The notes under the pieces are model-generated. The model saw only the letters and a list, made by a program, of their open reading frames with translations. It was not told where the DNA came from and ran no database searches. 64,000 nucleotides of DNA from a virus, in IMG/VR virus record IMGVR_UViG_3300032334_000488, positions 23,212 through 87,211 of that record. One strand, given 5' to 3'. Made by a program: the position numbers and the translations under genes. Below are positions 8,561 to 62,785 of the stretch, one piece after another. Position 1 is the stretch's first letter. Each line of letters opens with the position of its first letter.

Positions 8561-10558
8561 TTAGTTGTTTACAAGACGGCGAGAGATCGCGTACTTCACG
8601 ATTGATTTCGCCATGTAAACAAGATCGAATGGATTACGAATTACAGAAGCGATTTCGCAATAGTGCGATGTCTGATCTGTAAGAGGTTGCACCGCTTCTC
8701 CGTTTTCAGGAATGTAAGCGAATGCAGTAAGCACACCAGCACGAGCCATGCGCTTGATAGTTTCGTGATTAGCATCTTGATTGCCCGACCATTCTCCGTC
8801 AGTAATTGCGAAGAAGATTCGTACAGGTTTCTCAGTTTCAGCAAGCAATTTAGTTGCGTACTTAATTGCTTGATCTGCTGATGTACCGCCACCAGTACCA
8901 GCATCACGAATCGTGTTACCGACACGATCAGTTGCACGATAGAGAGTGTTTGCATGATCGTTGAAAGTGATAACAGTTGTATTTGCACTAACGCGATCAA
9001 GTGCCTTCTTAATTGCGTACATGGCTTTGTATGCACTAGAGGCTTTGTGTCCTGACATTGAACCTGAGTTGTCTAACAAGATCACGCATTCAATCTCAGT
9101 CGCATCTTCACGACCCTCATTCCATTGATCGAATACAGTATCGAGATCATCGCCACGTAAATAACGATGTGCAGATAAACGACCTTGTGACTCGTACTTA
9201 TCCCATGCAGGGTCGAACGATGCTCTCAATCGCTCTAACTCACGACCGAATGACAACGATGCTTGAAATGTATTTGCATCAGGTGCTAAGTCGTGAAAGC
9301 GATCTAGTTCAGGTTCTTTTGAGTTGTTAGTAGCAAGAGAAGGTAAGCCACCAATCTGTCGCAAGATGTCGTTGATTTCAGTTTCATTAGAATCAAGAAT
9401 GTTTTCTAATAGATCACCAATCAATGTGTCGATCATTTCGCCAGCAGAATTACCAGCAGAATCAGAAGAAGAAGGCGAATCAAAATCTTGATCTGAATCC
9501 TGATCTGAATCTGTATCATCGAAATCGAAATCGATGTCGTTGATGTCAACATCGATAACAGGTTTTGATTTCAGTTGTTCAGCCAGTTGTGCATCATCTT
9601 CTTTGTCGAGTTGTTGTGATCGATCACGATCTTTTTCTTGCTTCTTTGGTGGAACAGGTCGTGAGTTTGCAGAGGATTCCAAGCCCTCTTGTGGTCGCTT
9701 GCCATGACCGAATGGGTCATTGATGCGAACGATTACATCGCCCTCTTCACCAGCCTGTGCAGGGCGCACAGAGCCATTCTCGCCACTACCTGAACCATTA
9801 CCTGAGCCATTACCTTTTGGAAGTAACTCGTTAAATCGCGCAATTAGTTCCTTTCCTTTTTCAGTATCAGCAGGGAATAGAAGAGTGCGGTATTCATCGA
9901 CTACTGCACAGATTTCATCGATCTGATCTTGATGAGGATAGGCGTTACGAGATTGCGCTCTTAACTCCACAGGTAAGTATCTACGACCACGCAATAGCGG
10001 ATAAGAGTTAGTGAATGCCTCTTTGTTATCAACGAAGTGAATCAAGATTGTGGCAGTAAACCAATCAATCGTTGACGGATACTTTGAGGTAAAGAGAGTT
10101 TCGATTCTCTGATCTTCTAGTGCGTTGTATGCGGTGAAGTAATTGTTATCTCGTACATAATCGAAGAGTTCTGAACCCTCACGAGATGTGTAGAGAATGT
10201 GGCTGATCTCGTGAAGATCAAGCCCCTTGATACCAGCGATTGATTTAGCATCGTTGAGATCACCGATAGTGCGAGAGTTGAAAGTAACCGATGATGCACC
10301 TGACCAAGCAGGTGCTTCCATTGGTGAGTTCTCGACAGTCACAGTCACTTTGCGAAATGTGAATGCAGAATTAACACGACCGAAGAATTGTGTGAATCGT
10401 TCTAGTCGTTGCTTCTTCTCTTCTGCTTTCAACAGTTGTGATCGTAGTGACTCACGAGTCTCACCGAGAATGTCGAGTTCCCATTCTGCGACTGCATCGT
10501 TGTAATCCATTGTTACTCCATTTCGTTTACATGACGGACAATTACCACAAGCACACAT
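8561..10558 (-). CDS. VWA-domain protein with zincin-like HExxH motif (MoxR partner)
   Basis: A 665-residue protein. The N-terminus is Cys-rich (MCACGNCPSCKR). Residues 116-120 form HEISH, with ALEDQRIE about 26 residues later, the layout of the metallopeptidase-like region in CobT/VWA proteins. Residues about 245-375 are acidic, low-complexity linker. Residues 490-600 form a VWA domain with intact MIDAS: DNSGS (Asp496, Ser498, Ser500), GGGTSAD (Thr559) and TDGE (Asp587). Such proteins work with MoxR-type ATPases as metal-inserting or remodelling chaperones. The ATPase gene lies 2 nt upstream. The phage target is unknown. Confidence 0.85.
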   Translation of the reverse strand: MCACGNCPSCKRNGVTMDYNDAVAEWELDILGETRESLRSQLLKAEEKKQRLERFTQFFGRVNSAFTFRKVTVTVENSPMEAPAWSGASSVTFNSRTIGDLNDAKSIAGIKGLDLHEISHILYTSREGSELFDYVRDNNYFTAYNALEDQRIETLFTSKYPSTIDWFTATILIHFVDNKEAFTNSYPLLRGRRYLPVELRAQSRNAYPHQDQIDEICAVVDEYRTLLFPADTEKGKELIARFNELLPKGNGSGNGSGSGENGSVRPAQAGEEGDVIVRINDPFGHGKRPQEGLESSANSRPVPPKKQEKDRDRSQQLDKEDDAQLAEQLKSKPVIDVDINDIDFDFDDTDSDQDSDQDFDSPSSSDSAGNSAGEMIDTLIGDLLENILDSNETEINDILRQIGGLPSLATNNSKEPELDRFHDLAPDANTFQASLSFGRELERLRASFDPAWDKYESQGRLSAHRYLRGDDLDTVFDQWNEGREDATEIECVILLDNSGSMSGHKASSAYKAMYAIKKALDRVSANTTVITFNDHANTLYRATDRVGNTIRDAGTGGGTSADQAIKYATKLLAETEKPVRIFFAITDGEWSGNQDANHETIKRMARAGVLTAFAYIPENGEAVQPLTDQTSHYCEIASVIRNPFDLVYMAKSIVKYAISRRLVNN

Positions 10559-10560
10559 TG

Positions 10561-11442
10561 TTAAGCCGTTGCGTGTTCTGTTGTGATCTTTTCAGCATCG
10601 AGTCCAAGTTCTTCTCGAATGTTGTATGAAGTACCTTCAAGAAGCATCTTGACTGCGGGGCGTTCTTCATCAGAGAAGTTGTTTATGAATACATCGCAAG
10701 CGAAATCGAATGACAATCCTTTTGCAACCTTCTCGAATGTTTTCAAGATACGAGGTGATACAGGTGTCTCGAAGATAGTGCCACGATCTGATGCGTGATC
10801 GTCTCTGCGAGATGTTGATCGCATTCCGTTTGCGAGTTCCAAGAGTGAAGAGGATTTGATGATCTTCTTCTCAATCGTTGTGTCGTAATCGAATCGCAAT
10901 TTAATTTCGAAGCGATCTTTCCAAGCCTCGTTAAGTAACTGAGTACCTCGATAGTTTGGATTCTGATCTGCAACCACTAATAGATCAGGGTGTGCGTTGA
11001 TTACTTCGTTGTCATGTGACATGAGAGTAATTGAACGGCGATCATCGAGAAGGCTCATTAAGTACTGTGAGAGGTTCTTAGGGGCGTTGTTGAGTTCGTT
11101 GATAAGTAGCAAGCCACCCTCACGAACGATCTTTGTAATTGCGCCGTCAACCCACTTTAGTTTGCCGTCAGCATCAGGGAACAAACCACCAATTAATTGT
11201 GTGAAGTCGATTGCAGAGTTACATGGAACAGCGAAGAAGTTCATGTGTCGCTTTGATGCGTAAGCAAGTGCCGATGTTGTCTTGCCAGTTCCAGCATCGC
11301 CTTCGATTAAGATGTTCATGTTGTGAGCAAGTGCGAAGTCGTACATGGCATCTTCTGTAACGCCACCAGTAAAGGTGCGTGGAATGTAGTGCGATGTCTT
11401 TTCTAGCGTTGGAATAAATAGTGATTTGTTTTCTGTAGTCAT
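10561..11442 (-). CDS. MoxR/CbbQ-type AAA+ ATPase
   Basis: A 293-residue ATPase. Walker A is GDAGTGKTT (48-56) and Walker B is LLLINELNNAP (from 111), with sensor-like DQNPNYRGT. The size and lack of extra domains fit the MoxR/NorQ/CbbQ clade. It is followed 2 nt later by the VWA/HExxH protein, the standard partner order. Together they probably form a chaperone that remodels or activates a protein complex using ATP. MoxR-VWA pairs occur in several large phages, but their substrate is unsettled. Confidence 0.9.
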   Translation of the reverse strand: MTTENKSLFIPTLEKTSHYIPRTFTGGVTEDAMYDFALAHNMNILIEGDAGTGKTTSALAYASKRHMNFFAVPCNSAIDFTQLIGGLFPDADGKLKWVDGAITKIVREGGLLLINELNNAPKNLSQYLMSLLDDRRSITLMSHDNEVINAHPDLLVVADQNPNYRGTQLLNEAWKDRFEIKLRFDYDTTIEKKIIKSSSLLELANGMRSTSRRDDHASDRGTIFETPVSPRILKTFEKVAKGLSFDFACDVFINNFSDEERPAVKMLLEGTSYNIREELGLDAEKITTEHATA

Positions 11443-38100: not shown

Positions 38101-39159
38101 GTGGCTACTATAGATGGTATGGCAGACCGCCTACGTTATGAGATAGGCGACATCGGTCGTTCGTTTGTCTATCAGTTTATTGCTGATGGCACCACTAACC
38201 GTTTTCTTATTCCGTACTCTCCTCTTGATGGTGCTAACTTGGTTGTAAACCAAGAAGGCGATGACGTCTCTGCAACTGTTGAAGTAGAAGAAGCAACTGG
38301 CTACATTGTATTTGACACTGTGCCTGCTCCAGGTGACACCATTATTGTTGCTGGAAACTACTACAAGTATTTTACAAATGTTGAAATCTGCCAATACGTT
38401 ACAGACGCATTTGAGCAACACACAACTTTTCATACAGACTCTTATGGTCGAGTAATGAGTGTCTCTACTTTACCTACAGTCGAAGAATACCCAGTAGTTA
38501 TTTATGCATCTACTTTAGCCATGTACACACTGGCTACCGATGCCTCTTTTGACATTGACATTACAGCACCAGATGGAGTGATGATTCCTCGCTCTGAGCG
38601 TTATCGTCAGTTAATGCAGATGATTGATGTTCGCAAAAATCAATACAAGGAACTCTGCTCTCAACTTGGTATTGGTCTTTACAAGATCGACGTGTTTTCT
38701 TTGCGCCGTATCTCAAAGACCACCAACGAATATGTACCAGTCTTTGAACCACAAGAAATTGATAATAAGTCTCCTAAGACACGAGTTCGTCTACCTATTC
38801 CTACCTATGGAAATGTTAAGCCAACTCCAACGACTGTTGTACAAGACTTGAATATCTACGAAGGCGATGACTATGAGTTCTCTATTCGTTTAGACTTTGA
38901 AGTTGATAACCTCACTCCATTGGCAGAAATTAGATCACTTCCAGGTGCAGCAGTTGTAGTCACTGAGTTTACTGTAACAAAACCAAACATCACTGAAGAT
39001 GGCGATAACCAACGAACACTGGTCCTTTCACTTACTGGTGAACAGACTCGTTTACTTCCTGGAAAGTCTTACTACGACGTACAATTAACTGATGCAGAAG
39101 GCGTAACTCACACTTACGTCTCTGGAATAATCTTCGTTACCAAAGAGGTAAGCCAATGA
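38101..39159 (+). CDS. Neck or baseplate-associated protein (GTG start)
   Basis: A 352-residue protein. The N-terminal part (to about 205) includes helix DGMADRLRYEIGDIGRSFVY and beta segments as in head-tail adaptor proteins. The C-terminal 120 residues (VVQDLNIYEGDDYEFSIRLD; TYVSGIIFV) resemble the N-terminal BppU-like domain of baseplate proteins. The fusion could link the neck to fibres. The stop overlaps the next ATG. Confidence 0.6.
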   Translation: MATIDGMADRLRYEIGDIGRSFVYQFIADGTTNRFLIPYSPLDGANLVVNQEGDDVSATVEVEEATGYIVFDTVPAPGDTIIVAGNYYKYFTNVEICQYVTDAFEQHTTFHTDSYGRVMSVSTLPTVEEYPVVIYASTLAMYTLATDASFDIDITAPDGVMIPRSERYRQLMQMIDVRKNQYKELCSQLGIGLYKIDVFSLRRISKTTNEYVPVFEPQEIDNKSPKTRVRLPIPTYGNVKPTPTTVVQDLNIYEGDDYEFSIRLDFEVDNLTPLAEIRSLPGAAVVVTEFTVTKPNITEDGDNQRTLVLSLTGEQTRLLPGKSYYDVQLTDAEGVTHTYVSGIIFVTKEVSQ

Positions 39160-39809
39160 CCCCAAATCAATACACCCGTCCAGGGTCTAATACTGTTCCA
39201 ATCGCCGTAAACGATGTTGTATTAATTACAACTCCAGAAGGCACTACTCATCCATCAGGTTGTGGATGTGGTAGTTGTTCTGGTGGTGGTGGAGCAGTCA
39301 CTGGTGCACAAGGTACCCAAGGCGTTAGAGGCGCCCAAGGAATACAAGGCGTACAGGGAACTCAGGGCGTTATCGGATCTCAAGGTATCCAGGGTGTTCA
39401 AGGAAGAGCAGTACAAGGTACACAAGGAACGCAGGGTGCTGGAACTCCAGGAACTCAGGGTCTTCAAGGAACACAGGGCCTTGACGGTGCTTATGCAGCC
39501 CAAGGTATTCAAGGAGTACAAGGAACCGCAGGTTCTCAAGGTATTGGTGGAGCAACTCTTGACAACACCGATGACCTTACAGAAGGCACTACAAATAAGT
39601 ACTTCACAGTTGGTCGTGTATCATTTGAGCATACCCAGGGAGCAGCAAGTGCTACCTGGAATGTTGTTCACAATTTAAATTTTTATCCTAACGTTACAGT
39701 TCAAGATTCGGCTGGTAATATAGTCGAAGGTGAAATCGCTTACACTAATTCGGACTCCTTAGTAATAACCTTTTCAGCAGCGTTCTCAGGTACAGCCTAC
39801 TTATCTTAA
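39156..39809 (+). CDS. Collagen-like fibre protein 1
   Basis: A 217-residue protein. A short head ends in a Cys-rich motif (HPSGCGCGSCSGGGGAV), followed by about 75 residues of Gly-X-Y triplets (GTQGVRGAQGIQGVQG-like), and a compact C-terminal beta domain (TWNVVHNLNFYPNVTVQDSA). The triplets imply a triple helix; the Cys cluster could lock the trimer. It is a probable fibre or whisker on the virion. Confidence 0.8.
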   Translation: MTPNQYTRPGSNTVPIAVNDVVLITTPEGTTHPSGCGCGSCSGGGGAVTGAQGTQGVRGAQGIQGVQGTQGVIGSQGIQGVQGRAVQGTQGTQGAGTPGTQGLQGTQGLDGAYAAQGIQGVQGTAGSQGIGGATLDNTDDLTEGTTNKYFTVGRVSFEHTQGAASATWNVVHNLNFYPNVTVQDSAGNIVEGEIAYTNSDSLVITFSAAFSGTAYLS

Positions 39810-39821
39810 GGAGATAACCGA

Positions 39822-42815
39822 ATGGCAAGAAAGTTTTTAACCCCGATTGATTTAGGCAAACTTGAACTTCAAAATGCCCGAATTCAAAACCTTTCAACAG
39901 CACAAAAGCCAGTCAACCCAGTCGAAGGTCAGATCTACTATGACACTGACGATAAGGTTGTAAAGACCTGGAATGGTACTGCGTGGATTAACGCAAGCCA
40001 AGGTACACAAGGTGTGCAAGGCACTGTTGGTGCTCAGGGTGTACAAGGAACTCACGGTACACAGGGCGTACAAGGTACAGAAGGTCAACAGGGAACTCAA
40101 GGCACTGATGGTACCCAAGGTACTCAAGGTACCGATGGAACTCAAGGTACTCAAGGCACTGATGGTACACAAGGAACTCAGGGTACCGATGGAACCCAAG
40201 GTACACAGGGAACTGAAGGACAACAGGGTACTCAAGGTACAGATGGAACTCAAGGTACACAAGGTACTGATGGTACACAGGGCACACAAGGTACTGACGG
40301 CACACAAGGTGTGCAAGGAACCGAAGGTCAACAAGGAGTTCAAGGTACTGAAGGACAGCAAGGTACACAAGGAACAGAAGGCGCCCAAGGTACACAGGGA
40401 ACTGACGGTACACAAGGAACCGAAGGATCACAGGGTACACAGGGTGCTGAAGGTAACTTTGGTGGTATCACAGTTGTTTACAACTTTGATGATACTGTCA
40501 CAATGGCAGACCCAGGCGACAATAATGCTCGTCTAAACAATGCTAACCCAACTCTAGTTACACACCTGGCATTGGATGATAATCCTGCTGATGGTAACTA
40601 TGACATCTCTAACTTTTTACAAACAATCGATGACTCAACATCACCAATTAAGGGTCACGTAAAGGTATCTAGAAAATTTGATACTGCTACTTTTTACCTC
40701 TACACAATCTCTGGTGTTACAGATTCAGCGCCAAACTGGTTTGATGTAGAAGTTGCTTATGTCTCTGGTCAAGGAGCATTTACTGACGGAGAAGAACTTC
40801 TCTTTACATTTGCTCGTACTGGTGATGTTGGTGCTCAAGGTACACAAGGTACTGAGGGAGCCCAGGGCGTTCAAGGCACTGTAGGTTCTCAAGGAACTCA
40901 AGGCACATTAGGTGCACAAGGAACTCAAGGAGTCCAAGGCGTACAGGGCACTGAAGGTCAACAAGGAACTCAGGGCACACAAGGTACTGACGGTACCCAA
41001 GGTACTCTCGGTACTCAAGGTGCGGTTGGTACTCAGGGTACAGTTGGTGCTCAAGGCGCTCAAGGAACTCATGGAACCCAGGGTGTACAAGGTACGCAGG
41101 GAACACAGGGAGTTCAAGGAACCGAAGGCCAACAGGGAGTTCAGGGCACCGAAGGTCAGCAAGGAACCCAGGGTTCAGAAGGTGCACAGGGTACTCAAGG
41201 AGTACAGGGCGCTGAAGGAACTCAGGGTACTGAGGGTACACAAGGTGCTACAGGTACATTTGGTGGAGAAACCTTCGAGTACAACTACCTAACTAATACC
41301 GCAGATACAGACCCAACTGCAGGTAACTTTAAGTTTGACTTTACAACATTCTCATCTGTTACTGAACTTTACATCGACCCAATCGATGCAAACGCAACTA
41401 ACATTAGTTCTTTCCTACAGACTATTGATGACTCAACATCAGGTATTAAGGGAACAATTAAAGTAACAGATATTGCTGACCCTCTTAACTATGCCTTCTT
41501 CCAAATCATTGGTACTCACAATGAGAATGGTGGCGCTTACTTTACAGTGCCAGTCGCATATGTATCAGGTCCGCTATCACTTGGTAACAACGATAACGCA
41601 TACCTAACATTTGCAAGAGTTGGTGACAAGGGTGATACTGGTGCTCAAGGTACTACTGGTGCACAAGGCGTACAAGGTACTGTAGGTTCTCAAGGTACAC
41701 AAGGAACACTTGGAGCCCAAGGTACACAAGGAACTCAGGGTGTACAGGGAACTGACGGTACACAGGGAGTCCAAGGCTCTGAAGGTACTCAGGGAGTCCA
41801 AGGAACCGAAGGACAGCAGGGTACACAGGGAACTGAAGGCCAGCAGGGAACTCAAGGTACAGATGGTACCCAAGGAACCGAAGGTACAGCAGCCCTCTGG
41901 AATTTTGCTGGCCCTTATAGCGGCGGAGTTATCTATACCGAAGGTGACGTAGTTACCTACAACGGTCAAACTTGGTATCGCAAGATTTACGGTGCAGCGG
42001 GACATACACCAACAGAAGATACTTGGTGGACACTACTTGCTGCACAAGGTGTACAGGGAACTGAAGGCCAACAAGGTACACAAGGCACCGATGGTACTCA
42101 GGGTACTCAGGGTACAGACGGAACTCAAGGAGTTCAAGGTACTGAAGGACAGCAGGGCACACAGGGTACAGATGGTACCCAAGGTGTCCAAGGTACAGAA
42201 GGTACTCAAGGTACTGAAGGCCACTCCGACCGTTACAAGACGACCTCTACTACCTCACGTTCAATTGCGGTAGCAAACAACGTAAGTTTTGTACTGGCTG
42301 ATCCAGATCTTTCATACTCAGTTGGTCAGGATGTAGTAGTTGCTTACGATGTAAACAACCACATGTCCGCAACTGTAGTCAGTTACACATCAGGCACTAA
42401 TACACTTGTTGTAAATGTTAACGACATCAAGGGTTCAGGAACATACGCTGTATGGTCAATCAACCTAGATGGTGCTACTGGTGTACAGGGTACAACTGGT
42501 ACCCAAGGCACACAAGGTACAGATGGTATTCAAGGCCTTGACGGTGTTCAAGGTACACAAGGTACATCTGGTCAACTTGGAACCTATGCAACAACTATCA
42601 CTGGTGATTCAACCGATGGTGGAGCAACAGGAACTACATCGTTCCCAGTTACTCACAACCTCGGAACTACAGACATCATGGTCACAGTCTGGGATGCGGC
42701 TTCTAAGATGGAAGTTGTAACAGATGTAGCCTACGTAACTACTACCTCAGTAACGATTGGATTTGCAGTAGCGCCAATCACAACTAAGTCTTACAGAGTG
42801 GTAGTCAAGGCTTAA
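39822..42815 (+). CDS. Collagen-like tail fibre 2
   Basis: A 997-residue protein. The N-terminal 57 residues ([40 protein letters not shown]) match fibre attachment domains. Long Gly-Thr-Gln/Gly-Thr-Asp/Gly-Thr-Glu triplet tracts alternate with two about 115-residue beta modules (nt about 40465-40827 and 41262-41630). Residues about 689-737 ([20 protein letters not shown]) resemble a CBM5/12-type carbohydrate-binding module. A C-terminal beta domain ends the fibre. It is the likely receptor-binding collagenous fibre. Confidence 0.85.
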
Positions 42816-42818
42816 TCC

Positions 42819-43034
42819 ATGAGCAAAAAAGCACTCGTCCCAGTTAACGTATTGGCTAAGGCGTCAGCGCCCTCTGGCCAGTACGCTGGTGACGTGTACT
42901 ACGACTCAACAGATACATCGCTGTTTGTCTACACAGGCTCTGTGTGGACTGCAGTAGGTGCAGGCGCTATCGATGGTGGAACGCCAACAAGTAATTACAC
43001 AAGCAATCCTGTGGTAAATGGAGGAACTCCGTAA
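42819..43034 (+). CDS. Small fibre-associated protein
   Basis: A 71-residue protein. ASAPSGQYAGDVYYDSTDTS and SVWTAVGAG form the same fibre head module (short strands ending in a Trp-Thr turn) as in the preceding gene, plus a Gly/Pro/Asn tail. It may cap or adapt the fibre. It shares one base with the next start (TAATG). Confidence 0.65.
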   Translation: MSKKALVPVNVLAKASAPSGQYAGDVYYDSTDTSLFVYTGSVWTAVGAGAIDGGTPTSNYTSNPVVNGGTP

Positions 43035-46000
43035 TGGCATCAAAGATTCAAGTTCGTCGTGGATCGTCTTCACAGTGGAATGCTGTCTCATCAGTAGTCC
43101 TATCTGAAGGTGAAATCGGCTTTGAAATCAATACTGGAAAGTTCAAGATTGGTGATGGAACTTCTACTTGGGCCGCTCTTCCTTACTTCATTGACGAAGA
43201 TGCAGTTGCTTCTCTTGTTAGCGGCGCAGCATTAGCAAACACTGATGATCTTCCACAGGGAACTACTAATCTTTATCACACAGTTCAGCATGTCTATGAA
43301 GCACTAGATAGCGGATCTCTACAAAATATCTTTATCTCATATGTAGATGGTGCTATTGATATCTCAGTACCAACTGTTCAAGGAACTCAAGGTACACAGG
43401 GAGCAAGCATCCAGGGTGTACAAGGTACACAAGGAACACAGGGCTTTTATGGTACTCAAGGAACTACAGGAGCACAAGGAACTGCAGGCTATGTCGGTGC
43501 AGATGGAGCGCAAGGCACACAGGGAACTCAAGGAGTTCAGGGTGTACAAGGAGTCCAAGGCGTACAAGGCGTACAGGGAACTACTGGTAGCCAAGGCGTA
43601 CAAGGAGTTCAGGGCGTTCAAGGTGTGCAAGGCGTACAAGGACTGCAGGGTGTTCAAGGAACACTAGGCGCCCAAGGTGCGGCAGGTAACTTTGGTGGAG
43701 CAACCTTTGACTACACATTCAGCACAAGCACAACAGCGGCTGATCCAGGAACTGGAAACATTCGCTTTAATGCGACACCTACTTCAGCAACTGCTATGTA
43801 CATCGATAGTAGCAATGATGCTGCAACTGACATCTCAACATTCTTAAACACAATCGGCGGATCAACATCAACTATCAAGGGACACTTCCGTGTATCCAAG
43901 AAGTTTGATGACAGCGTCTTTAAACTTTACACAATCTCATCTGTCACAGATAACACTGGCTGGTTCACTGTTAACTGCTCTTATGTATCTGGTAACGGAA
44001 CACTCTCAAACTCTGACGACATCGTAGTCACCTTTGCTCGCACTGGTGATAAGGGTGATACAGGTATCCAGGGTGTACAAGGACCAGAAGGTACTCAAGG
44101 CGTACAAGGCACACAGGGTGTACAGGGTGTGCAGGGAGTCCAAGGAACTGAAGGACAACAGGGAACCCAGGGTATACAGGGCACCCAGGGCACTCAAGGC
44201 ACTCTAGGAGCGCAAGGCGCTGTTGGTGCACAAGGTGTACAGGGCACACAAGGTACCCAAGGTACTCAGGGAGTTCAGGGCGTACAAGGTACAGAAGGAA
44301 CCCAGGGCGTACAAGGAATCCAAGGTACACAGGGTGTACAAGGAAAAGAAGGTGTTGGAACTCAAGGAACTGACGGTACACAGGGTACTCAGGGTGTTAT
44401 GGGTACATCAGGATCTTCTTCCTCTAACTTTAACTACTCAGTTGATAGCAATACAGCAGATGCAAAACCAGGAAATGGTCAACTACGATTTAACAACGCG
44501 ACACAAACATCTGCTACTTTCCTATACATAGATCACATTAACGACTCAGGCGTTGATATCGATGTTCTTTTGGGACTTCTTAAGACAGACGACAGTGTAA
44601 TTGTTCAAAAGAAATCAGATTCAAATGTTTACATTACTTTTAGAGTAACTGGCGCTGTAACTGTTGTATCAAACAGTTATGTAAAGGTTCCAGTAACGAG
44701 CACTGGCGATGGTGGAACAGGCAACAACTCATTTACTGGTGGACAAGCGATTGAAGTTATCACCTTTACAACTGGTCTTCAAGGACCAGTTGGTGCACAA
44801 GGTGCAGTTGGTCCTCAAGGCACACAGGGTGTACAGGGCACAACTGGCGCACAAGGCACACAAGGTACTCAAGGTACTCAAGGCACTCAAGGCACCCTAG
44901 GTGCACAAGGTGCAACAGGTGCTCAAGGAGCAACTGGTGCCCAGGGAACCCAAGGCACTCAAGGCACCACAGGAGCGCAAGGTGCTACAGGAGCCCAGGG
45001 TGTGCAGGGTACACAGGGTGTACAAGGCACACAGGGAACTACTGGCGCGCAAGGAGTACAGGGAGTCCAAGGCCTACAGGGTGTACAAGGTACTCTAGGT
45101 GTGCAGGGTGCTGCTGGTAACTTTGGCGGTGCTTCATTTGACTACACCTACAGCACAACTATCACCGCTTCAGATCCAGGTACTGGAAATGTTCGCTTTA
45201 ACTCTTTGACTTTATCTTCTGCAACTGCGGTCTACTTAGACGCAAGTAACGATGCAGCAACAGATATCACATCCTTCCTTAATACTATCGGAACATCGAC
45301 CTCTACAATCAAGGGTCACTTCCGTATGTCAAAGAAGTTTGACGATAACTCATTTGCGCTCTTTACAATCTCATCAGTTACAAACAACACTGGCTGGTTT
45401 ACTGTAAGTGCATCTTACGTATCTGGCAACGGAACATTTGCAAATTCAGATGACATTGTTATCACATTTGCCCGTACAGGTGACAAGGGTGACACTGGTA
45501 CACAGGGTGTACAAGGACCTACAGGTACACAGGGAACCCAAGGCACTCAGGGTACGCAAGGTACCCAAGGTACACAGGGAACTACTGGAGCCCAAGGAAC
45601 ACAAGGAACTCAAGGTCTACAGGGTCCTGGCGGTACATACGCTAACTCTGCTGCACTAGCAGCGGCTCTTAGCGATGAGACTGGTTCTGGTGCTGCTGTA
45701 TTCGGTACAAGCCCAACTCTAAAGGGACCTATCTACTTCCAGAGCGGTGGCGGTGCTGGTGGATCTGCTAACACACTTGATGTTAACAATTCAACAGGAG
45801 CGGTAACTCTTACAAGCGGTTATCCACTCAACCTTACTGCAACAGGTGATGTGACAATCACAGCAACTGGTGGAGCAGCAAAGGTTGGCTCTGACACTAT
45901 CGCAACTCTTACAGCGTCACAGACACTGACTAACAAGACACTCACTTATCCAGCAATTGACAATCTAAAGTTAGGTTATGCAACTACTGCAACAGCAGCG

Positions 46001-46462
46001 GGAACAACAACCCTCACTGTGTCAAGTGCTAGACAACAACTATTTACTGGTTCTACAACACAGACAATTGTTCTACCAGTAACAAGCACTCTGGCAACAG
46101 GTGTTAGTTACGAGATTGAGAACAACTCAACTGGTAACCTAACTGTTAACTCATCAGGCGGTAACTTAGTAGCAACAGTAATTTCTGGAACTACAGCACA
46201 CGTCTTGTGTATTGGAACTACTCTGACTACTGCCGCTGATTGGGATGTTGATTTTATCGCTTTCAGTACTCTTAGCGGTACTGGCGCAAATGTATTAGGT
46301 ACTGCACCATCGATCTCTAACTTAACTATCACTGGAACATTAACTGCAGGTGGTGGAGCAGGTACTAACGGCCAGGTACTAACATCTACAGGATCTGGAA
46401 CTCAGTGGGCTGCGGCTGCATCTGATGCAACTCCTACAGTGTTGATGCTAGGTGGAATGTAA
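43034..46462 (+). CDS. Collagen-like tail fibre 3
   Basis: An 1142-residue protein. The N-terminus (KIQVRRGSSSQWNAVSSVVL; GEIGFEINTGKFKIGDGTST) is a common phage fibre head domain. Gly-X-Y tracts rich in GTQ and GVQ are interrupted by three beta modules (about 43695-44055, 44420-44780, 45130-45495), related to those of fibre 2. The C-terminal 280 residues are a beta-rich tip (LTNKTLTYPAIDNLKLGYAT) like other fibre C-termini. The stop directly abuts the stop of the convergent glycosyltransferase. Confidence 0.85.
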   Translation: MASKIQVRRGSSSQWNAVSSVVLSEGEIGFEINTGKFKIGDGTSTWAALPYFIDEDAVASLVSGAALANTDDLPQGTTNLYHTVQHVYEALDSGSLQNIFISYVDGAIDISVPTVQGTQGTQGASIQGVQGTQGTQGFYGTQGTTGAQGTAGYVGADGAQGTQGTQGVQGVQGVQGVQGVQGTTGSQGVQGVQGVQGVQGVQGLQGVQGTLGAQGAAGNFGGATFDYTFSTSTTAADPGTGNIRFNATPTSATAMYIDSSNDAATDISTFLNTIGGSTSTIKGHFRVSKKFDDSVFKLYTISSVTDNTGWFTVNCSYVSGNGTLSNSDDIVVTFARTGDKGDTGIQGVQGPEGTQGVQGTQGVQGVQGVQGTEGQQGTQGIQGTQGTQGTLGAQGAVGAQGVQGTQGTQGTQGVQGVQGTEGTQGVQGIQGTQGVQGKEGVGTQGTDGTQGTQGVMGTSGSSSSNFNYSVDSNTADAKPGNGQLRFNNATQTSATFLYIDHINDSGVDIDVLLGLLKTDDSVIVQKKSDSNVYITFRVTGAVTVVSNSYVKVPVTSTGDGGTGNNSFTGGQAIEVITFTTGLQGPVGAQGAVGPQGTQGVQGTTGAQGTQGTQGTQGTQGTLGAQGATGAQGATGAQGTQGTQGTTGAQGATGAQGVQGTQGVQGTQGTTGAQGVQGVQGLQGVQGTLGVQGAAGNFGGASFDYTYSTTITASDPGTGNVRFNSLTLSSATAVYLDASNDAATDITSFLNTIGTSTSTIKGHFRMSKKFDDNSFALFTISSVTNNTGWFTVSASYVSGNGTFANSDDIVITFARTGDKGDTGTQGVQGPTGTQGTQGTQGTQGTQGTQGTTGAQGTQGTQGLQGPGGTYANSAALAAALSDETGSGAAVFGTSPTLKGPIYFQSGGGAGGSANTLDVNNSTGAVTLTSGYPLNLTATGDVTITATGGAAKVGSDTIATLTASQTLTNKTLTYPAIDNLKLGYATTATAAGTTTLTVSSARQQLFTGSTTQTIVLPVTSTLATGVSYEIENNSTGNLTVNSSGGNLVATVISGTTAHVLCIGTTLTTAADWDVDFIAFSTLSGTGANVLGTAPSISNLTITGTLTAGGGAGTNGQVLTSTGSGTQWAAAASDATPTVLMLGGM

Positions 46463-57148: not shown

Positions 57149-57823
57149 TTAAGAGTTCTTCCATTCAGTCATAGTCTTGTCCACCTTACTAGAGTTACAA
57201 GACTTACATAGGGGCTGTAAATTTCCAATCGAGTGTGCACCGCCACGAGCAATCGGAATTATGTGATCAATAGTAATACGTTCCGTAGAGCCACAGGCCA
57301 CACAAGGACTGTTCATCAACTTGTGTAACTCTTTCTTGGGTACCTCAAATACTCCGTTCTGAGCCTTACGTGCTCTACGAGTCATGTGGTGTTTCTGAAC
57401 TGCCTCTAAATTGTTCTTCCTGTAATCAGCCTTTATCTGTCTAACCTTTTCAGGGTTGTTCTTACGGTAGTTCTGAGTTCTTTCTTTATTCTCTTTTTTG
57501 TGGGCCTTGTTGTACTCACGAATATCCGCAAGAAGTTTATCTCTGTTATTTTTTCTATACTGACGAGCATACTCAAGACGACGCTCTTGGGTCTTTTGAT
57601 AGTACGCCTTGTTGTAAGCCAACTCTTTATCACGATACTTCTTGCGATTCTTTCTCTTGAGTTTATTGATGTGCTCTTTATCTTTTTTGTAATACTGCTT
57701 TCGTCTTTCAGCAGCACAGGATTTACAGAAAGAACTTAAACCACTCTTTAATGCTTTGTTTACAGTAAAATTAAATACAGGTTGAGATTTACCGCATACG
57801 CTGCATTCTTTGGTTTTTTCCAT
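57149..57823 (-). CDS. HNH endonuclease with long basic helix
   Basis: About 224 residues. N-terminal zinc knuckle (CSVCGKSQPVFNF; CKSCAAERRKQYY), a very basic helical repeat region (about 45-145, with several YRKNN units), and a C-terminal HNH domain: PCVACGSTERITIDHIIPIA, RGGAHSIGNLQPLCKSCNSS. It is a typical free-standing homing nuclease. It is inserted opposite to the surrounding plus-strand genes. The start may be 57823, 57829 or 57838. Confidence 0.88.
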   Translation of the reverse strand: MEKTKECSVCGKSQPVFNFTVNKALKSGLSSFCKSCAAERRKQYYKKDKEHINKLKRKNRKKYRDKELAYNKAYYQKTQERRLEYARQYRKNNRDKLLADIREYNKAHKKENKERTQNYRKNNPEKVRQIKADYRKNNLEAVQKHHMTRRARKAQNGVFEVPKKELHKLMNSPCVACGSTERITIDHIIPIARGGAHSIGNLQPLCKSCNSSKVDKTMTEWKNS

Positions 57824-57887
57824 AAACATAGAATACATCCAAGGGCGGTTTAAGTCATACTAGAACATCTAGGTTAGGAGCCACAAA

Positions 57888-58541
57888 ATGCGTGGAACCC
57901 ATATAGAAAGTCGTTTTAAGATCGACTTTGAAAACAGGTCGATCAATGAAGGCATTGTCGACGAACTTCGTAGACCTGTTGGCTCTATCGTTCAGTGGTG
58001 GCTATGGGATGCCCAGTTCTATGCAGACCATCCTAACGAGGTACTAGATCCCATCTACGATGTCTCTAACCAGACAGATGGACAAGGTCGTCGCTGGCAG
58101 TTCCCGTTTGAAGTCCCTGTGATCATGGCCCAACAACTACGTGGTACCAACGTGATGAACGAACGTGGCTACTACGTTACAGACACGTTGCGACTTGTCA
58201 TTGCAGTCGATGATGTGCAGCGCCTGTTGCCTCAGTTGATGGATGATCCTAATATCCATATCAAGGATCGAGTTGTTTTTGGTGGCGAAGTATTTGTTCC
58301 AACCCGTGTCTTGCCTCGTGGTCGTTACGGCAACAACTACTCAGTGGTCACTATTGACTGCAACATGGTCAACAGCGAAGAGTTGGTCAACGACTCCCAG
58401 TTCCAAGACTATGTTGATGTTCCTGCTGGCTACGTGGTGCCTCCAACAAATACTGGAAATACATCCACACCAATCTTAAATCCCGTATATCCTGTGGGCA
58501 ATGCTGGTATTGATGGCGGTACACCTAGCAGCCCATTCTAG
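57888..58541 (+). CDS. Head-tail connector-type protein
   Basis: A 217-residue protein: HIESRFKIDFENRSINEGIV, RPVGSIVQWWLWDAQFYADH and VIAVDDVQRLLPQLMDDPNI. The C-terminus is low complexity. Position among connector genes suggests a neck or minor head protein; no family is confirmed. Confidence 0.6.
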   Translation: MRGTHIESRFKIDFENRSINEGIVDELRRPVGSIVQWWLWDAQFYADHPNEVLDPIYDVSNQTDGQGRRWQFPFEVPVIMAQQLRGTNVMNERGYYVTDTLRLVIAVDDVQRLLPQLMDDPNIHIKDRVVFGGEVFVPTRVLPRGRYGNNYSVVTIDCNMVNSEELVNDSQFQDYVDVPAGYVVPPTNTGNTSTPILNPVYPVGNAGIDGGTPSSPF

Positions 58542-58553
58542 GAAAGGATTGCA

Positions 58554-58679
58554 ATGGACGATTTTGAAGTAGAGATTGACCCTTCGCTCTTTGAGGACGA
58601 AGGAGTAGACTTGGATGACCTCGACTATGACAAGCACGCTCTTGACGAGGAAGACCTCGATGATTGGGAGGATGAGTAA
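58554..58679 (+). CDS. Very acidic microprotein
   Basis: A 41-residue peptide, MDDFEVEIDPSLFEDEGVDL, with about half Asp/Glu. It is the only acidic member before a string of lysine-rich microproteins and may act as their counter-ion or chaperone (inference). GAAAGGA precedes it; it shares one base with the next start. Confidence 0.65.
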   Translation: MDDFEVEIDPSLFEDEGVDLDDLDYDKHALDEEDLDDWEDE

Positions 58680-58846
58680 TGGCAGCAAAGAAAGTTAACA
58701 AGGGTAAGGTTGAGAAAGTGATGCGGGAGTACTCAGAAGGCAAGTTACATTCTGGATCTAAAAAGGGCCCAGTAGTTAAATCAAAGAAGCAGGCCCTCGC
58801 AATTTCTCTTTCAGAAGCGGGTCTTTCTAAGAAGAAAAAGAAGTAA
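58679..58846 (+). CDS. DUF6496-like basic protein
   Basis: A 55-residue protein: KVEKVMREYSEGKLHSGSKK, GPVVKSKKQALAISLSEAG, then Lys-rich end. This matches a small family of phage and bacterial proteins of unknown role. TAATG links it on both sides. Confidence 0.75.
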   Translation: MAAKKVNKGKVEKVMREYSEGKLHSGSKKGPVVKSKKQALAISLSEAGLSKKKKK

Positions 58847-59079
58847 TGCCTGAGAAGAAGAAGCCAGTTGAGAAGCCTGTAAAGATTGGCATCAAAGTTC
58901 CTGGTAAGCCAGCACGTGAAGTTCACACTATCAAAAAGAACAAGCAGGGTGATGTAATTGTTGACCACGCAAAGCGTGGCGGTGCCTACGACAAGATCAA
59001 CTTGACTAAGAAGGCTGGCGTTAAAACTATTAAGCAAGGTGTTAAAGCGACTAAAGATTGGCATAAGAAAAATGGCTAG
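58846..59079 (+). CDS. Lysine-rich protein
   Basis: A 77-residue very basic protein (KKKPVEKPVKIGIKVPGKPA; ITLTKKAGV-like NLTKKAGVKTIKQGVKATKD). It resembles histone-tail composition. No fold is evident beyond a short beta segment (EVHTIKKNKQGDVIVD). Confidence 0.65.
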   Translation: MPEKKKPVEKPVKIGIKVPGKPAREVHTIKKNKQGDVIVDHAKRGGAYDKINLTKKAGVKTIKQGVKATKDWHKKNG

Positions 59080-59377
59080 TGAAGCATGGCAGAAAAGTTC
59101 TGGTAAGAACAAAAAAGGCGGACTCAATGAGAAGGGACGCAAGTCCTACGAGAAGGCAAACCCTGGCTCTGATCTAAAGGCGCCAGTAAAATCTGGTGAC
59201 AACCCTCGTCGTGCATCTTTCCTTGCTCGCATGGGTGGAATGCCAGGACCAGAACGCAAACCTAATGGTGAGCCAACACGCTTGTTGCTCTCCCTACAAG
59301 CATGGGGAGCATCGTCAAAGGCTGATGCTAAGAAGAAGGCAGCGGCTATCTCTGAGCGAAACAAGGGAAAACGCTAA
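59072..59377 (+). CDS. DUF6321-like protein
   Basis: A 101-residue protein: SEAWQKSSGKNKKGGLNEKG, RKSYEKANPGSDLKAPVKSG, RRASFLARMGGMPGPERKPN. This matches a small family widespread in aquatic phages. It is basic and probably structural or DNA-associated. The start at 59072 overlaps the preceding stop; upstream codons are rejected. Confidence 0.8.
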   Translation: MASEAWQKSSGKNKKGGLNEKGRKSYEKANPGSDLKAPVKSGDNPRRASFLARMGGMPGPERKPNGEPTRLLLSLQAWGASSKADAKKKAAAISERNKGKR

Positions 59378-59538
59378 TGGCTAAGGAAGTTTGGAACACT
59401 AAGAATCCAAAGAAGAAGTCAACACCGTTGTCATCATCAGCAAAGAGTGCGGCAAAGGCACGAGCAGCAAAGGCTGGTCGTCCTTATCCAAACTTGATTG
59501 ACAATATGTGGGCCTCAAAACAATCGAAAGGTAAGTAA
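59377..59538 (+). CDS. Lysine/alanine-rich microprotein
   Basis: A 53-residue protein: MAKEVWNTKNPKKKSTPLSS then an Ala/Lys helix and AGRPYPNLIDNMWASKQSKG. Linked by TAATG at the start. Function unknown. Confidence 0.6.
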   Translation: MAKEVWNTKNPKKKSTPLSSSAKSAAKARAAKAGRPYPNLIDNMWASKQSKGK

Positions 59539-59540
59539 CT

Positions 59541-59648
59541 ATGTGTGCTAGTTGTAAATGTTCTTGCACCAAGAACAAGCCAATGAAGGGCTGCAAGTGC
59601 TCTTGCAACGCTTGCAAGGCTGCCCGTTCAGCAAAGAAGGCTAAGTAA
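59541..59648 (+). CDS. Cys/Lys-rich microprotein
   Basis: A 35-residue peptide with eight Cys: MCASCKCSCTKNKPMKGCKC then SCNACKAARSAKKAK. It is likely metallothionein-like or multi-zinc. TAATG joins it to the next gene. Confidence 0.6.
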   Translation: MCASCKCSCTKNKPMKGCKCSCNACKAARSAKKAK

Positions 59649-59788
59649 TGGCTAAGTCATTAACCCCAAAGCAGAAGAAGATTGCTGGTGCTGCAAAGCC
59701 AGTAGACAAGATTACAGGCGCTGACTTCAAGGCCCTTAAAAAGGGTAAGGCAGCCAAGATGACTATGAACAAGAAGAAGGGTATGTAA
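59648..59788 (+). CDS. Lysine-rich microprotein
   Basis: A 46-residue peptide, MAKSLTPKQKKIAGAAKPVD, KITGADFKALKKGKAAKMTM, with about one third Lys. Overlaps at both ends support translation. Confidence 0.6.
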   Translation: MAKSLTPKQKKIAGAAKPVDKITGADFKALKKGKAAKMTMNKKKGM

Positions 59789-59958
59789 TGCCAAAGATGT
59801 CAGACAAGAAGCAAGATGCCAAGGTAATGAAAGGCATGACTGCAGAACAGAAGAAGAAGTTTGCCAAGGCTGATAAGGCCATGGATAAGAAGAAGCCATC
59901 TCGATCAGAAGATGAGAAGATGGATAAGGCATTAGCCAAAAAGATTAAAAAGAAGTAA
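59788..59958 (+). CDS. Lysine-rich microprotein
   Basis: A 56-residue helical peptide: MPKMSDKKQDAKVMKGMTAE, QKKKFAKADKAMDKKKPSRS and a Lys-rich end. It is the last of the array, immediately before a strong terminator. Confidence 0.62.
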   Translation: MPKMSDKKQDAKVMKGMTAEQKKKFAKADKAMDKKKPSRSEDEKMDKALAKKIKKK

Positions 59959-59963
59959 TGACT

Positions 59964-59987
59964 AAGCGCCCTAATTGGGCGCTTTTT
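59964..59987 (+). terminator. Rho-independent terminator after the microprotein array
   Basis: AAGCGCCC-TAATT-GGGCGCTT, a perfect 8-bp stem with a 5-nt loop, running into TTTTT. It ends the connector/microprotein operon; the tail operon must have its own promoter in 59988-60062. Confidence 0.92.
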
Positions 59988-60062: not shown

Positions 60063-60257
60063 ATGGCGTACAAACCATGGTACGAACAGGTTGCCGAAAT
60101 GAACAATCAGAAAGAACGTGAAGAGTTCATCAAGGGCGTGTTTGGATTCCGCCCTACAGAAAAACGCCCAATCGTCGCAGGATTGATTTTAGGTTCTACT
60201 GCTGCATATCTAGCAGGAGCCGCAAAGACTGTGTCGAAGGCGAAGAAAAAGAAGTGA
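60063..60257 (+). CDS. Small membrane-span protein before tail genes
   Basis: A 64-residue protein: a charged helix (YEQVAEMNNQKEREEFIKGV), one hydrophobic stretch (IVAGLILGSTAAYLAGA), and a Lys-rich end. Function unknown; the start follows AAAGGGG. It overlaps the next GTG start by 4 nt. Confidence 0.6.
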   Translation: MAYKPWYEQVAEMNNQKEREEFIKGVFGFRPTEKRPIVAGLILGSTAAYLAGAAKTVSKAKKKK

Positions 60258-60571
60258 CTTACTTCCAAGAGATTAAGAATTCAATTCATAAGGCAAGCGT
60301 AGAAACCACACGCTTTATGTCTGCCCACCTTCGCTCTGAAGCCCGCAAGTCTGGCTGGCCTGAAGACATCGTTCGCCACCTATCTGTCAACCATTCTAAT
60401 GGCGCCTTTACTGTGCACTCTCATGAGTCCCACAGAGCAGAGGTCCTCAACCTTGAGTACGGAACCCCTAGCACTCAGCCAACTGCTGCTATTCGTCGGT
60501 TCAAGAACCGCACCTCCCATGCAGAAAAGTTTCTCGTTAATCGAGCCATGTCTCATCTAGGAGGAAAGTAA
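60254..60571 (+). CDS. Neck / tail-completion-like protein (GTG start)
   Basis: A 105-residue protein: FQEIKNSIHKASVETTRFMS, HLRSEARKSGWPEDIVRHLS, then HRAEVLNLEYGTPSTQPTAA and a C-terminal helix. The pattern (helix, strands, LEYGT box, helix) fits HK97 gp10-type proteins that join head and tail. It precedes the tail terminator. Confidence 0.65.
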   Translation: MTYFQEIKNSIHKASVETTRFMSAHLRSEARKSGWPEDIVRHLSVNHSNGAFTVHSHESHRAEVLNLEYGTPSTQPTAAIRRFKNRTSHAEKFLVNRAMSHLGGK

Positions 60572-61282: not shown

Positions 61283-62785
61283 ATGGCATATAGCCGCCCA
61301 GGTGTTTACATCAGTGAACGCCTACTACCAGCACCACTAACAGGTGGTGTCACTGCTAACGCTGCTGGCGCTGTTGTTGCACCATTTGCACAAGGCCCAG
61401 AAGCCGTAACGCTTGTTTCATCTTGGTATGAATTTACTAAGAACTTTGGAGGCTATAACGCCTCATACCCAGCAACTTTCCAGGTTGGTGCCTTCTTTGC
61501 TAATGGTGGACGTGAACTCTACGTCAAGCGCCTTCTTGCAGATGATGCAGACCCAGCAGCAGTAAACCTTCTTACATCAGGAAGTCTTGTTGTTGCTACT
61601 GTCACATCAAAGAATGCAGGAGCAGATGGCAATAACCTTCGTGTTGTTGTATCTGCTGGATCAGTTTCTGGAACATACACATTGACTCTCTACAAGGAGT
61701 CTGGTGTTCTTAATGACATTGCTGATGACGTACTGCTAGAGCGCTATGAGAACGTGGTCTTTAATGACCCAACATCTAGCGATTTTGCTGAGACAGTTAT
61801 CAACCTAGTCTCACCAAACATCACAATCAGTGCAAGTGCATCAGGTGTTCCAGTTGCTACTAAGTACCCACTAACAGGTGGATCAAACGGAACTACTCCA
61901 GTTGCAACTGACTACACAGAGTACAAGGGCGGAGATGCTTCAGTATTTGAAGACTTCACATCACTTGATCGTCCTCTTGTATTCTTCCTACCTGCAGTAA
62001 ATGCACTTGCTTCAGGTGCTGTTTCAGTATTTGATGCAGCAACATCATGGTCAGAGGCAAACAACGGTTTCGTTGTATTGGACACTGATCCAGACCTAAC
62101 AGTTGCAAACGCAATCTCATTTGCAGGAAGTCTGACAGATACCAGCAATGCTGCTGTCTACTACCCAAATGTCTACATTGCTGATCCTCTAGGACGTGGA
62201 GCAGGTGCTCTTCGCAAGATTGGCCCAGCAGGTTCTGTTGTAGGACTGTACCTAGCAACTGATGCAAGCCGTGGAGTATTCAAGGCACCAGCAGGTATTG
62301 CTAGTGCTATCCAAGGAATCGTTGCTGTAGAAAGAGCATTTTCATCTGCAGAACTTGATTCAATGAACGCAAGCACATCTCCTGTAAACCCAATCCGTCA
62401 GATTCCTGGCGCTGGACTATCAGTGATGGGTGCTCGTACATTGAAGCAAGATGGAACAGCGAACAAGTATGTCAACATGCGTCGTTCACTTATCTACATC
62501 CGTAAGAACCTTAAGAACCTTACTGAGTTTGCAATCTTTGAAAACAACGATGAGCGTCTATGGGCGCTTATCCGTACTAGCCTTGGTTCATTCCTCAATG
62601 AGTATCGCAACCAGGGTGGTCTTCGTGGAGCAACAGCGGCACAGGCTTACTTCGTTAAGTGCGACGCTGAAAACAACACAGCCCAATCAATTGCCAATGG
62701 AGAGGTACACATCCAAGTTGGTGTGGCTCTTCAGTACCCAGCAGAGTTCATCGTCATCGACCTCAGCCAAAAGACGCTGAACTAA
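61283..62785 (+). CDS. Contractile tail sheath protein
   Basis: A 500-residue protein. The N-terminus SRPGVYISERLLPAPLTGGV is the classic sheath start; VAPFAQGPEAVTLVSSWYEF and FFANGGRELYVKRLL follow. The C-terminal domain holds VNMRRSLIYIRKNLKNLTEF, FENNDERLWALIRTSLGSFL, AYFVKCDAENNT and EFIVIDLSQKTLN, the conserved inner-tube contact region. It defines the phage as a myovirus. AGGAG precedes the ATG. Confidence 0.96.
   Translation: MAYSRPGVYISERLLPAPLTGGVTANAAGAVVAPFAQGPEAVTLVSSWYEFTKNFGGYNASYPATFQVGAFFANGGRELYVKRLLADDADPAAVNLLTSGSLVVATVTSKNAGADGNNLRVVVSAGSVSGTYTLTLYKESGVLNDIADDVLLERYENVVFNDPTSSDFAETVINLVSPNITISASASGVPVATKYPLTGGSNGTTPVATDYTEYKGGDASVFEDFTSLDRPLVFFLPAVNALASGAVSVFDAATSWSEANNGFVVLDTDPDLTVANAISFAGSLTDTSNAAVYYPNVYIADPLGRGAGALRKIGPAGSVVGLYLATDASRGVFKAPAGIASAIQGIVAVERAFSSAELDSMNASTSPVNPIRQIPGAGLSVMGARTLKQDGTANKYVNMRRSLIYIRKNLKNLTEFAIFENNDERLWALIRTSLGSFLNEYRNQGGLRGATAAQAYFVKCDAENNTAQSIANGEVHIQVGVALQYPAEFIVIDLSQKTLN

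What the first reader, a model, noticed from the sequence alone, without database searches (positions are those of the whole stretch)
58554..59958. Array of lysine-rich microproteins joined by TAATG
After an acidic 41-residue peptide come seven very small basic proteins (35 to 101 residues), nearly all connected by one-base stop-start overlaps and closed by a strong terminator. Composition resembles histone tails; one is an eight-Cys peptide. Two match small domain families (DUF6496, DUF6321). They sit between connector and tail genes, so they may be packaged with DNA, neutralise charge or condense the genome, with the acidic peptide as chaperone.
Basis: partly seen in the sequence, partly recalled or inferred. 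Interest (0 to 1): 0.62.

Follow-up and report, generated by a model that had tools for sequence, protein, structure and literature searches.

The report
Phage operon of basic microproteins
A freshwater phage carries a string of eight tiny, tightly coupled genes for one acidic and seven lysine-rich proteins; close relatives of one of them are found in virions of marine cyanophages, where some carry a head-targeting tag, so the set is most likely packed inside the virus head with its DNA.

Summary
The array is real and exactly placed. Eight ORFs (58554-59958) encode one acidic peptide (-21) and seven basic microproteins (+10 to +15 each, +88 together). Five of seven junctions are one-base TAATG overlaps, and a strong terminator follows. 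All eight are under purifying selection. The ordered set, with exchangeable slots, lies between the same flanking genes in 55 other IMG/VR contigs.

The DUF6321 protein (D) and another array family (F3) recur as modules of large Lys-rich proteins beside terminase genes of T4-like cyanophages. Such proteins are listed in the S-CREM2 virion proteome, and one is labelled a virion protein in S-SCSM1. Stand-alone cyanophage DUF6321 proteins begin with a peptide resembling T4's capsid-targeting sequence. S-SZBM1 is a counter-example: its DUF6321 protein was not detected.

The window proteins lack that tag, and no S77/S78 prohead protease was found in the 87-kb record. Most likely they are head-internal DNA-binding proteins working like T4 IPs, encoded pre-cut. 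DNA condensation versus injection as early effectors is unresolved. The acidic-chaperone idea is untested. New variant of a known kind.

The parts
58554..58679 (+). A: acidic peptide, 41 aa, net -21; its 3' end (GGGAGGATGAG) provides the Shine-Dalgarno-like site for gene B
   Evidence: acidic gene precedes the basic genes in 44 of 56 loci; SD-like site at 24 of 27 distinct acidic-to-basic one-base junctions
58679..58846 (+). B: 55 aa, net +13, DUF6496 domain (PF20106); predicted two-helix domain
   Evidence: dN/dS 0.21; bacterial homologs, some with HC2/H1-like tails
58846..59079 (+). C: 77 aa, net +15, family without Pfam match, very conserved
   Evidence: dN/dS 0.135
59072..59377 (+). D: 101 aa, net +15, DUF6321 domain (PF19846); 8-base overlap with C; predicted four-helix domain
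   Evidence: homologs in cyanophage proteins, two of them virion-listed
59377..59538 (+). E: 53 aa, net +11, phrog_34011 (unknown function); slot taken by family F3 in many relatives
   Evidence: dN/dS 0.10
59541..59648 (+). F: 35 aa, net +10, eight Cys
   Evidence: other small Cys-bearing families (F4, F12) occur near this position in relatives; dN/dS 0.16
59648..59788 (+). G: 46 aa, net +12
   Evidence: dN/dS 0.10
59788..59958 (+). H: 56 aa, net +12, last gene of the array
   Evidence: dN/dS 0.13
59964..59984 (+). Intrinsic terminator closing the array
   Evidence: terminator-like structure after the array in 33 of 56 loci
57888..58541 (+). N: 217-aa conserved flanking gene, probable head-tail connector by position (no family match); used as upstream anchor
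   Evidence: 26% identical stretch at GiJojo gp75 between capsid and tail terminator
60063..60571 (+). I (64 aa, one hydrophobic segment) and J (105 aa): downstream anchors, before the 226-aa gene, sheath and tube

Best explanation
The array is a late, translationally coupled set of virion-internal basic microproteins. The eight ORFs are read from one message. Strong ribosome-binding sites lie before the acidic gene and at its end; most basic-to-basic junctions lack one and are probably reached by stop-start reinitiation, giving roughly matched amounts. The basic proteins enter the head during assembly or DNA packaging and bind the packaged DNA, neutralising part of its charge and possibly leaving with it at infection. 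They are built from the same modules (DUF6321, F3, and F6/F8 in relatives) that T4-like cyanophages and pelagiphages make as capsid-targeted proteins or Lys-rich polyproteins. Shown here: gene reality, order, conservation, coupling anatomy, shared modules, listing of homologous proteins in cyanophage virions, and CTS-like N-termini on some cyanophage homologs. Inferred: that the window's own proteins are packaged, that they bind DNA, that expression is late, the copy number, and the role of the acidic peptide.
For: Array between the same flanking genes in 56 distinct loci, median 7 basic microproteins, median summed charge +88; dN/dS 0.10-0.26. Location among structural genes. Module sharing: DUF6321 in cyanophage proteins between TerS and TerL/sheath; F3 and DUF6321 fused in the same cyanophage proteins and F8+F6 fused in pelagiphage Hodr beside its DUF6321 gene between TerS and TerL. 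Virion proteomes: S-CREM2 gp137 (DUF6321, 40.8 bits), gp160 (F3) and Lys-rich gp136 and gp155 are in the published table (PMC10665884); S-SCSM1 gp29 (F3+DUF6321) is labelled virion protein by authors who ran virion mass spectrometry (PMC9602691). CTS: S-CREM1 gp179, S-SZBM1 gp192 and P-TIM40 gp114 score 39, 33 and 25 against T4 ipIII's first ten residues, background maximum 15 of 71. T4 IPs are small basic head proteins at about 300 copies that bind DNA (PMC9026906). DUF6496 is fused to HC2/H1-like tails in some bacteria. At 300 copies each the window set would balance about 15% of the phosphates of 87 kb.
Against: No proteomics or binding data for this phage or any relative with the separate array. 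S-SZBM1 gp192 (DUF6321) and gp194 (+65) are absent from its 30-protein virion table (PMC9146016). The S-CREM2 table gives only 4 peptides for gp137, not mapped to the DUF6321 domain, and its authors note that non-virion proteins may co-purify. The window proteins have no CTS, so how they would enter the head is unknown. Only DUF6321, F3, F6 and F8 link to the cyanophage or pelagiphage proteins; B, C, E, G and H were not found there. DUF6496 also occurs on ordinary bacterial chromosomes, so it is not virion-specific. No solved structure resembles the models.
Confidence: 0.52

Rival explanations
1. Virion-packaged early effectors: the microproteins ride in the head but their job is in the new host cell (blocking restriction or nucleases, coating the incoming DNA, take-over), as T4 IPI does; basic charge is mainly for packaging with DNA.
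For: Repertoire varies by slot between relatives (32 clusters of basic ORFs in 56 loci; E versus F3; several Cys-bearing alternatives) as expected for an arms race. D is a folded, strictly conserved domain, not just charge. Cyanophage Lys-rich proteins can carry an enzyme module (SAM lyase in S-SZBM1 gp194), and the SAM hydrolase, kinase and cytidylyltransferase in the S-CREM2 virion list have CTS-like N-termini. [quoted passage not shown]
Against: Purifying selection is strong (dN/dS about 0.1 for D, E, G), unlike fast-evolving anti-defence proteins; net charge stays near +12 across families of different length.
Confidence: 0.22
2. Non-virion late factors: nucleic-acid-binding helpers acting in the cell during assembly (packaging, RNA or ribosome binding, keeping replicated DNA compact) and not retained in particles.
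For: Cyanophage, pelagiphage and L047 copies sit beside terminase genes; S-SZBM1 gp192 and gp194 not seen in virions; DUF6496 is common on bacterial chromosomes.
Against: Two virion lists include DUF6321 proteins and CTS-like peptides imply head entry in cyanophages.
Confidence: 0.2
3. Cationic lysis or antibacterial peptides, or metal-binding stress peptides (the eight-Cys F).
For: Small, cationic; F and other slot families are Cys-bearing.
Against: Lys-rich with Gly, Ser and Asn and folded helical domains rather than amphipathic membrane peptides; not next to lysis genes in the window; homologs fused into large proteins in virion lists.
Confidence: 0.04

Closest known systems
T4 internal head proteins IPI, IPII, IPIII (PMC9026906)
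   Same: Small basic proteins; variable repertoire between relatives; cyanophage DUF6321 homologs carry a CTS resembling that of IPIII.
   Different: Window proteins have no CTS and no S77 prohead protease was found in the 87-kb record; seven proteins in one coupled array preceded by an acidic peptide; no sequence similarity to the mature IPs was shown.
Lys-rich DUF6321 proteins of T4-like cyanophages (T4-GC119; phrog_727, phrog_3477, phrog_4689)
   Same: Same DUF6321 domain, often with the F3 module, in the structural/packaging region; some virion-listed.
   Different: Mostly long multi-module proteins with protease-like hydrophobic-x-E-A/G sites (21 observed, 8.8 expected), whereas the window encodes modules as separate genes; B, C, E, G and H modules not found there.
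Pelagibacter phage Hodr DUF6321 region
   Same: Stand-alone DUF6321 gene (102 aa) followed by small basic genes, between terminase small and large subunits.
   Different: Contains a fused F8-F6 protein; no acidic leader and not the same gene set.
Histone H1-like HC2 proteins and DUF6496 fusions of bacteria
   Same: DUF6496 is joined to HC2-like Lys/Ala tails in Chitinophaga (HC2 47.1 bits, cut-off 40) and similar tails in two MAGs.
   Different: Window B has no HC2 match and only a short Lys tail; the HC2 match is to low-complexity sequence.
Ascovirus P64 (PMC6163548)
   Same: Cationic virion protein reported to condense viral DNA: a working analogy.
   Different: Large single protein of an insect virus; no homology tested or implied.

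Membership tests
DUF6496 (PF20106) | Profile match above curated cut-off | tested here: met
   B: 37.3 bits, cut-off 24
DUF6321 (PF19846) | Profile match above curated cut-off over the whole domain | tested here: met
   D: 86.6 bits, cut-off 28.5, profile 1-72 of 72
T4-type internal head proteins | N-terminal capsid-targeting sequence ending in a glutamate cleavage site | tested here: not met
   Window A-H score -9 to 4 against T4 ipIII's first ten residues; cyanophage homologs 15-39
T4-type internal head proteins | Processing by an S77 prohead protease of the phage | tested here: not met
   No S77 in G000 or five relatives (records may be fragments), positive in S-CREM2; no S78 either
T4-type internal head proteins | Small, basic | tested here: met
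   35-101 aa, net +10 to +15
T4-type internal head proteins | Present inside the mature head | not testable with these tools
   No proteome of a phage with the array; cyanophage homologs listed in virions, not detected in S-SZBM1
T4-type internal head proteins | Binds DNA | not testable with these tools
   Needs purified protein
Histone H1-like HC2 (PF07382) | Profile match | tested here: not met
   None of A-H matches; only bacterial DUF6496 fusions do
HC1/HC2-like disordered histone tails | Disordered low-complexity chain | tested here: not met
   For B and D only: AlphaFold pLDDT 80 and 85 with helices; C, E-H not modelled

The most novel reading that the evidence does not exclude
Aquatic tailed phages share a modular kit of head-internal basic domains, a viral nucleoid kit, delivered by two genetic strategies: as capsid-targeted proteins or polyproteins cut by the prohead protease (T4-like cyanophages), or as a pre-cut string of stop-start coupled microgenes headed by an acidic partner in phages that lack that protease.
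Probability: 0.3. Interest if true: 0.8.

Novelty: new variant of a known kind. Interest (0 to 1): 0.6.

Why it matters
DUF6321 and DUF6496 have no function, and no paper in the searched library names either, yet DUF6321 was found in over 460 phage records. Placing these modules inside phage heads would give a first testable role to a widespread family of aquatic phage dark matter and would show how a set of basic head proteins can be made without the T4 targeting-and-cutting route. It bears on the long-open question of what T4-type internal proteins do. The small size of the genes makes expression, DNA-binding and virion-localisation tests straightforward.

Tried and rejected
Recent exchange as the cause of the very high identity of array proteins: rejected, since synonymous divergence matches that of the flanking gene (pS about 0.7) and almost no pairs have low pS in the array with high pS in the flank. 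Chance ORFs: rejected. Simple disordered-tail reading: rejected for B and D. Known fold: no PDB match by sequence or structure. A second array in the window: none found. Streptomyces phage GiJojo, the closest sheath relative, has no array at this place. DUF6496 and C proteins have no match among public phage records at the tblastn threshold used. DNA search with the S-SZBM1 gp192 end only returned close relatives. A mistyped row stopped one structure job; the alignment was rebuilt without that row.

Full report
OBSERVATION. A (58554-58679) is a 41-aa acidic peptide with 22 Asp/Glu and one Lys. B, C, D, E, F, G and H are 55, 77, 101, 53, 35, 46 and 56 aa, with net charges +13, +15, +15, +11, +10, +12 and +12. 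Five of seven junctions are one-base stop-start overlaps; C/D overlaps by 8 bases and E/F has a gap of 2. A GC-rich hairpin with a T tail follows at 59964-59984; the 61-nt stretch containing it folds at -21.6 kcal/mol, z -6.3. B matches DUF6496 and D matches DUF6321 above the Pfam cut-offs.

GENOME. The window is bases 23212-87211 of an 87,211-bp IMG/VR virus record with a contractile tail. The sheath (61283-62785) is 36% identical to Streptomyces phage GiJojo. Tube, terminase large subunit, portal and capsid protein match PHROGs. The gene upstream of the array (N, 57888-58541) matches no family and is called a connector by position only.

REAL GENES AND A CONSERVED SET. Searches with C and N found related IMG/VR loci. 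In 56 distinct loci (window included) N and J flank an array with a median of 7 basic microproteins (3-11) and a median summed charge of +88; an acidic peptide precedes the first basic gene in 44. Of 350 junctions, 198 are one-base overlaps and 45 are 8-base overlaps. Median pairwise dN/dS is 0.26, 0.21, 0.135, 0.10, 0.10, 0.16, 0.10 and 0.13 for A-H, against 0.12 for N and 0.34 for J. Synonymous divergence is as deep as in N, so high protein identity reflects constraint, not recent transfer. Slots are exchangeable: E alternates with F3, and different Cys-bearing families occupy neighbouring positions. Clustering gave 32 clusters with mean charge +12.7, sd 2.8; some clusters merge neighbouring genes, and the basic ORFs were selected for charge of at least +8, so count and mean are approximate. 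Other IMG/VR loci without N carry shorter runs of the same families; in L047 the run lies upstream of ORFs resembling the window's terminase, portal and scaffold.

TRANSLATION. Shine-Dalgarno-like motifs stand before A and at 24 of 27 distinct acidic-to-basic one-base junctions, but at only 22 of 141 basic-to-basic one-base junctions and 3 of 39 8-base junctions. The Glu/Asp codons at the end of A supply the site for B (GGGAGGATGAGTAATG). Coupled reinitiation through the basic genes is inferred.

LINK TO VIRIONS THROUGH RELATIVES. DUF6321 occurs in over 460 public phage records, mostly cyanophages. In T4-like cyanophages it is often the C-terminal domain of a long Lys-rich protein, or a stand-alone gene, between TerS (gp16) and TerL (gp17) or the sheath. 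Profiles built from the freshwater arrays find F3 and D together in syn9 gp114, S-SCSM1 gp29, S-8S55 and S-P4 proteins, and F8+F6 fused in pelagiphage Hodr beside its DUF6321 gene (PHROG support). These are separate, sometimes adjacent, genes in the arrays. In S-CREM2, gp137 (DUF6321, 40.8 bits), gp160 (F3 module, net +30) and Lys-rich gp136 and gp155 are all in the published virion table (PMC10665884). Among 126 S-CREM2 proteins examined, Lys-rich ones are enriched in the virion list (6 of 40 against 2 of 86, p=0.013). S-SCSM1 gp29 is labelled virion protein in its record and the authors determined virion proteins by mass spectrometry (PMC9602691). Against this, S-SZBM1 gp192 (DUF6321) and gp194 are absent from a 30-protein virion table (PMC9146016).

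CAPSID TARGETING. T4 internal proteins enter the head through a ten-residue N-terminal capsid-targeting sequence and gp21 cleaves after L/I-x-E (PMC9026906). Compared with the T4 ipIII N-terminus taken from the T4 record, DUF6321 proteins S-CREM1 gp179, S-SZBM1 gp192 and P-TIM40 gp114 score 39, 33 and 25, against a maximum of 15 in 71 background proteins; S-RIM44 gp111 scores 15 and is not distinguishable. In P-TIM40 and S-CREM1 the DUF6321 domain begins directly after the glutamate, which is close to where the window's D begins (MASEAWQKSSGKN). Cyanophage Lys-rich proteins are enriched in hydrophobic-x-E-A/G sites (21 observed, 8.8 expected by shuffling), consistent with cutting between modules; no cleavage was measured. 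The window proteins have no such tag, and neither S77 nor S78 proteases were found in the record or five relatives, with S-CREM2 as positive control for S77. These records may be fragments and a divergent protease could be missed.

WHAT THE PROTEINS MAY DO. AlphaFold gives D four helices (pLDDT 85) and B two helices (pLDDT 80), without PDB matches by fold or sequence. D keeps invariant G, L, P, R and W positions, so it has a specific job beyond charge. DUF6496 is widespread on bacterial chromosomes; in Chitinophaga it is fused to an HC2/H1-like tail and in several alphaproteobacteria to a tail resembling Rho_N, the latter below the Pfam cut-off. In two bacterial MAG contigs DUF6496 and DUF6321 genes are neighbours. 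T4 IPs are basic, about 300 copies per head, bind DNA at low salt and are dispensable. With the same copy number the window set would offset about 15% of the phosphate charge of 87 kb: meaningful but not full condensation.

VERDICT. The best reading is a coupled set of virion-internal, DNA-associated basic proteins that works like T4 internal proteins but is not a member of that family by the CTS and protease tests. Whether the main role is genome compaction or delivery of early effectors is open. The novelty is the pre-cut array organisation and the link between two unnamed Pfam families and phage heads.

Noticed in passing
window 57149-57838, minus strand: 229-aa HNH-endonuclease-like ORF (by eye) on the opposite strand just upstream of gene N; in relatives, other ORFs of 145-498 aa are inserted between N and the acidic gene, so this junction is an insertion hot spot.
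   Followed up: no
window 39156-46462: Very long collagen-like QGTQGVQGT repeat proteins between capsid and tail modules.
   Followed up: no
L121:23253-25376 (minus), S-SZBM1 gp194: 707-aa Lys-rich protein (+65) with a SAM lyase domain (PF23780) preceded by an internal stretch, FITYREFIAEG, resembling the T4 capsid-targeting sequence.
   Followed up: partly
L203 and L120 (S-CREM2 gp6, gp13, gp14, gp154): Four proteins of the S-CREM2 virion list, including SAM hydrolase, kinase and cytidylyltransferase, share a CTS-like MKxFxxFLxE start; 0 of 86 non-virion proteins examined have it (p=0.009). Suggests enzymes delivered inside cyanophage heads.
   Followed up: partly
L064:3165-3458, L047:8167-8454, L045:8540-8833: A basic 95-97-aa microprotein (family F9) in related arrays is HNH-like (PF13392, just below cut-off), placed among the basic genes.
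   Followed up: partly
L228, L229 (bacterial MAG contigs): DUF6496 and DUF6321 genes next to each other in contigs binned as Aestuariivirga and Acidobacteriaceae, possibly viral contigs; same pair as in the window array.
   Followed up: no
window 8561-11442, minus strand: 665-aa ORF with a possible von Willebrand-type C-terminal part next to a 293-aa ATPase-like ORF, resembling a CobT/CobS-like or MoxR-like pair; by eye only.
   Followed up: no
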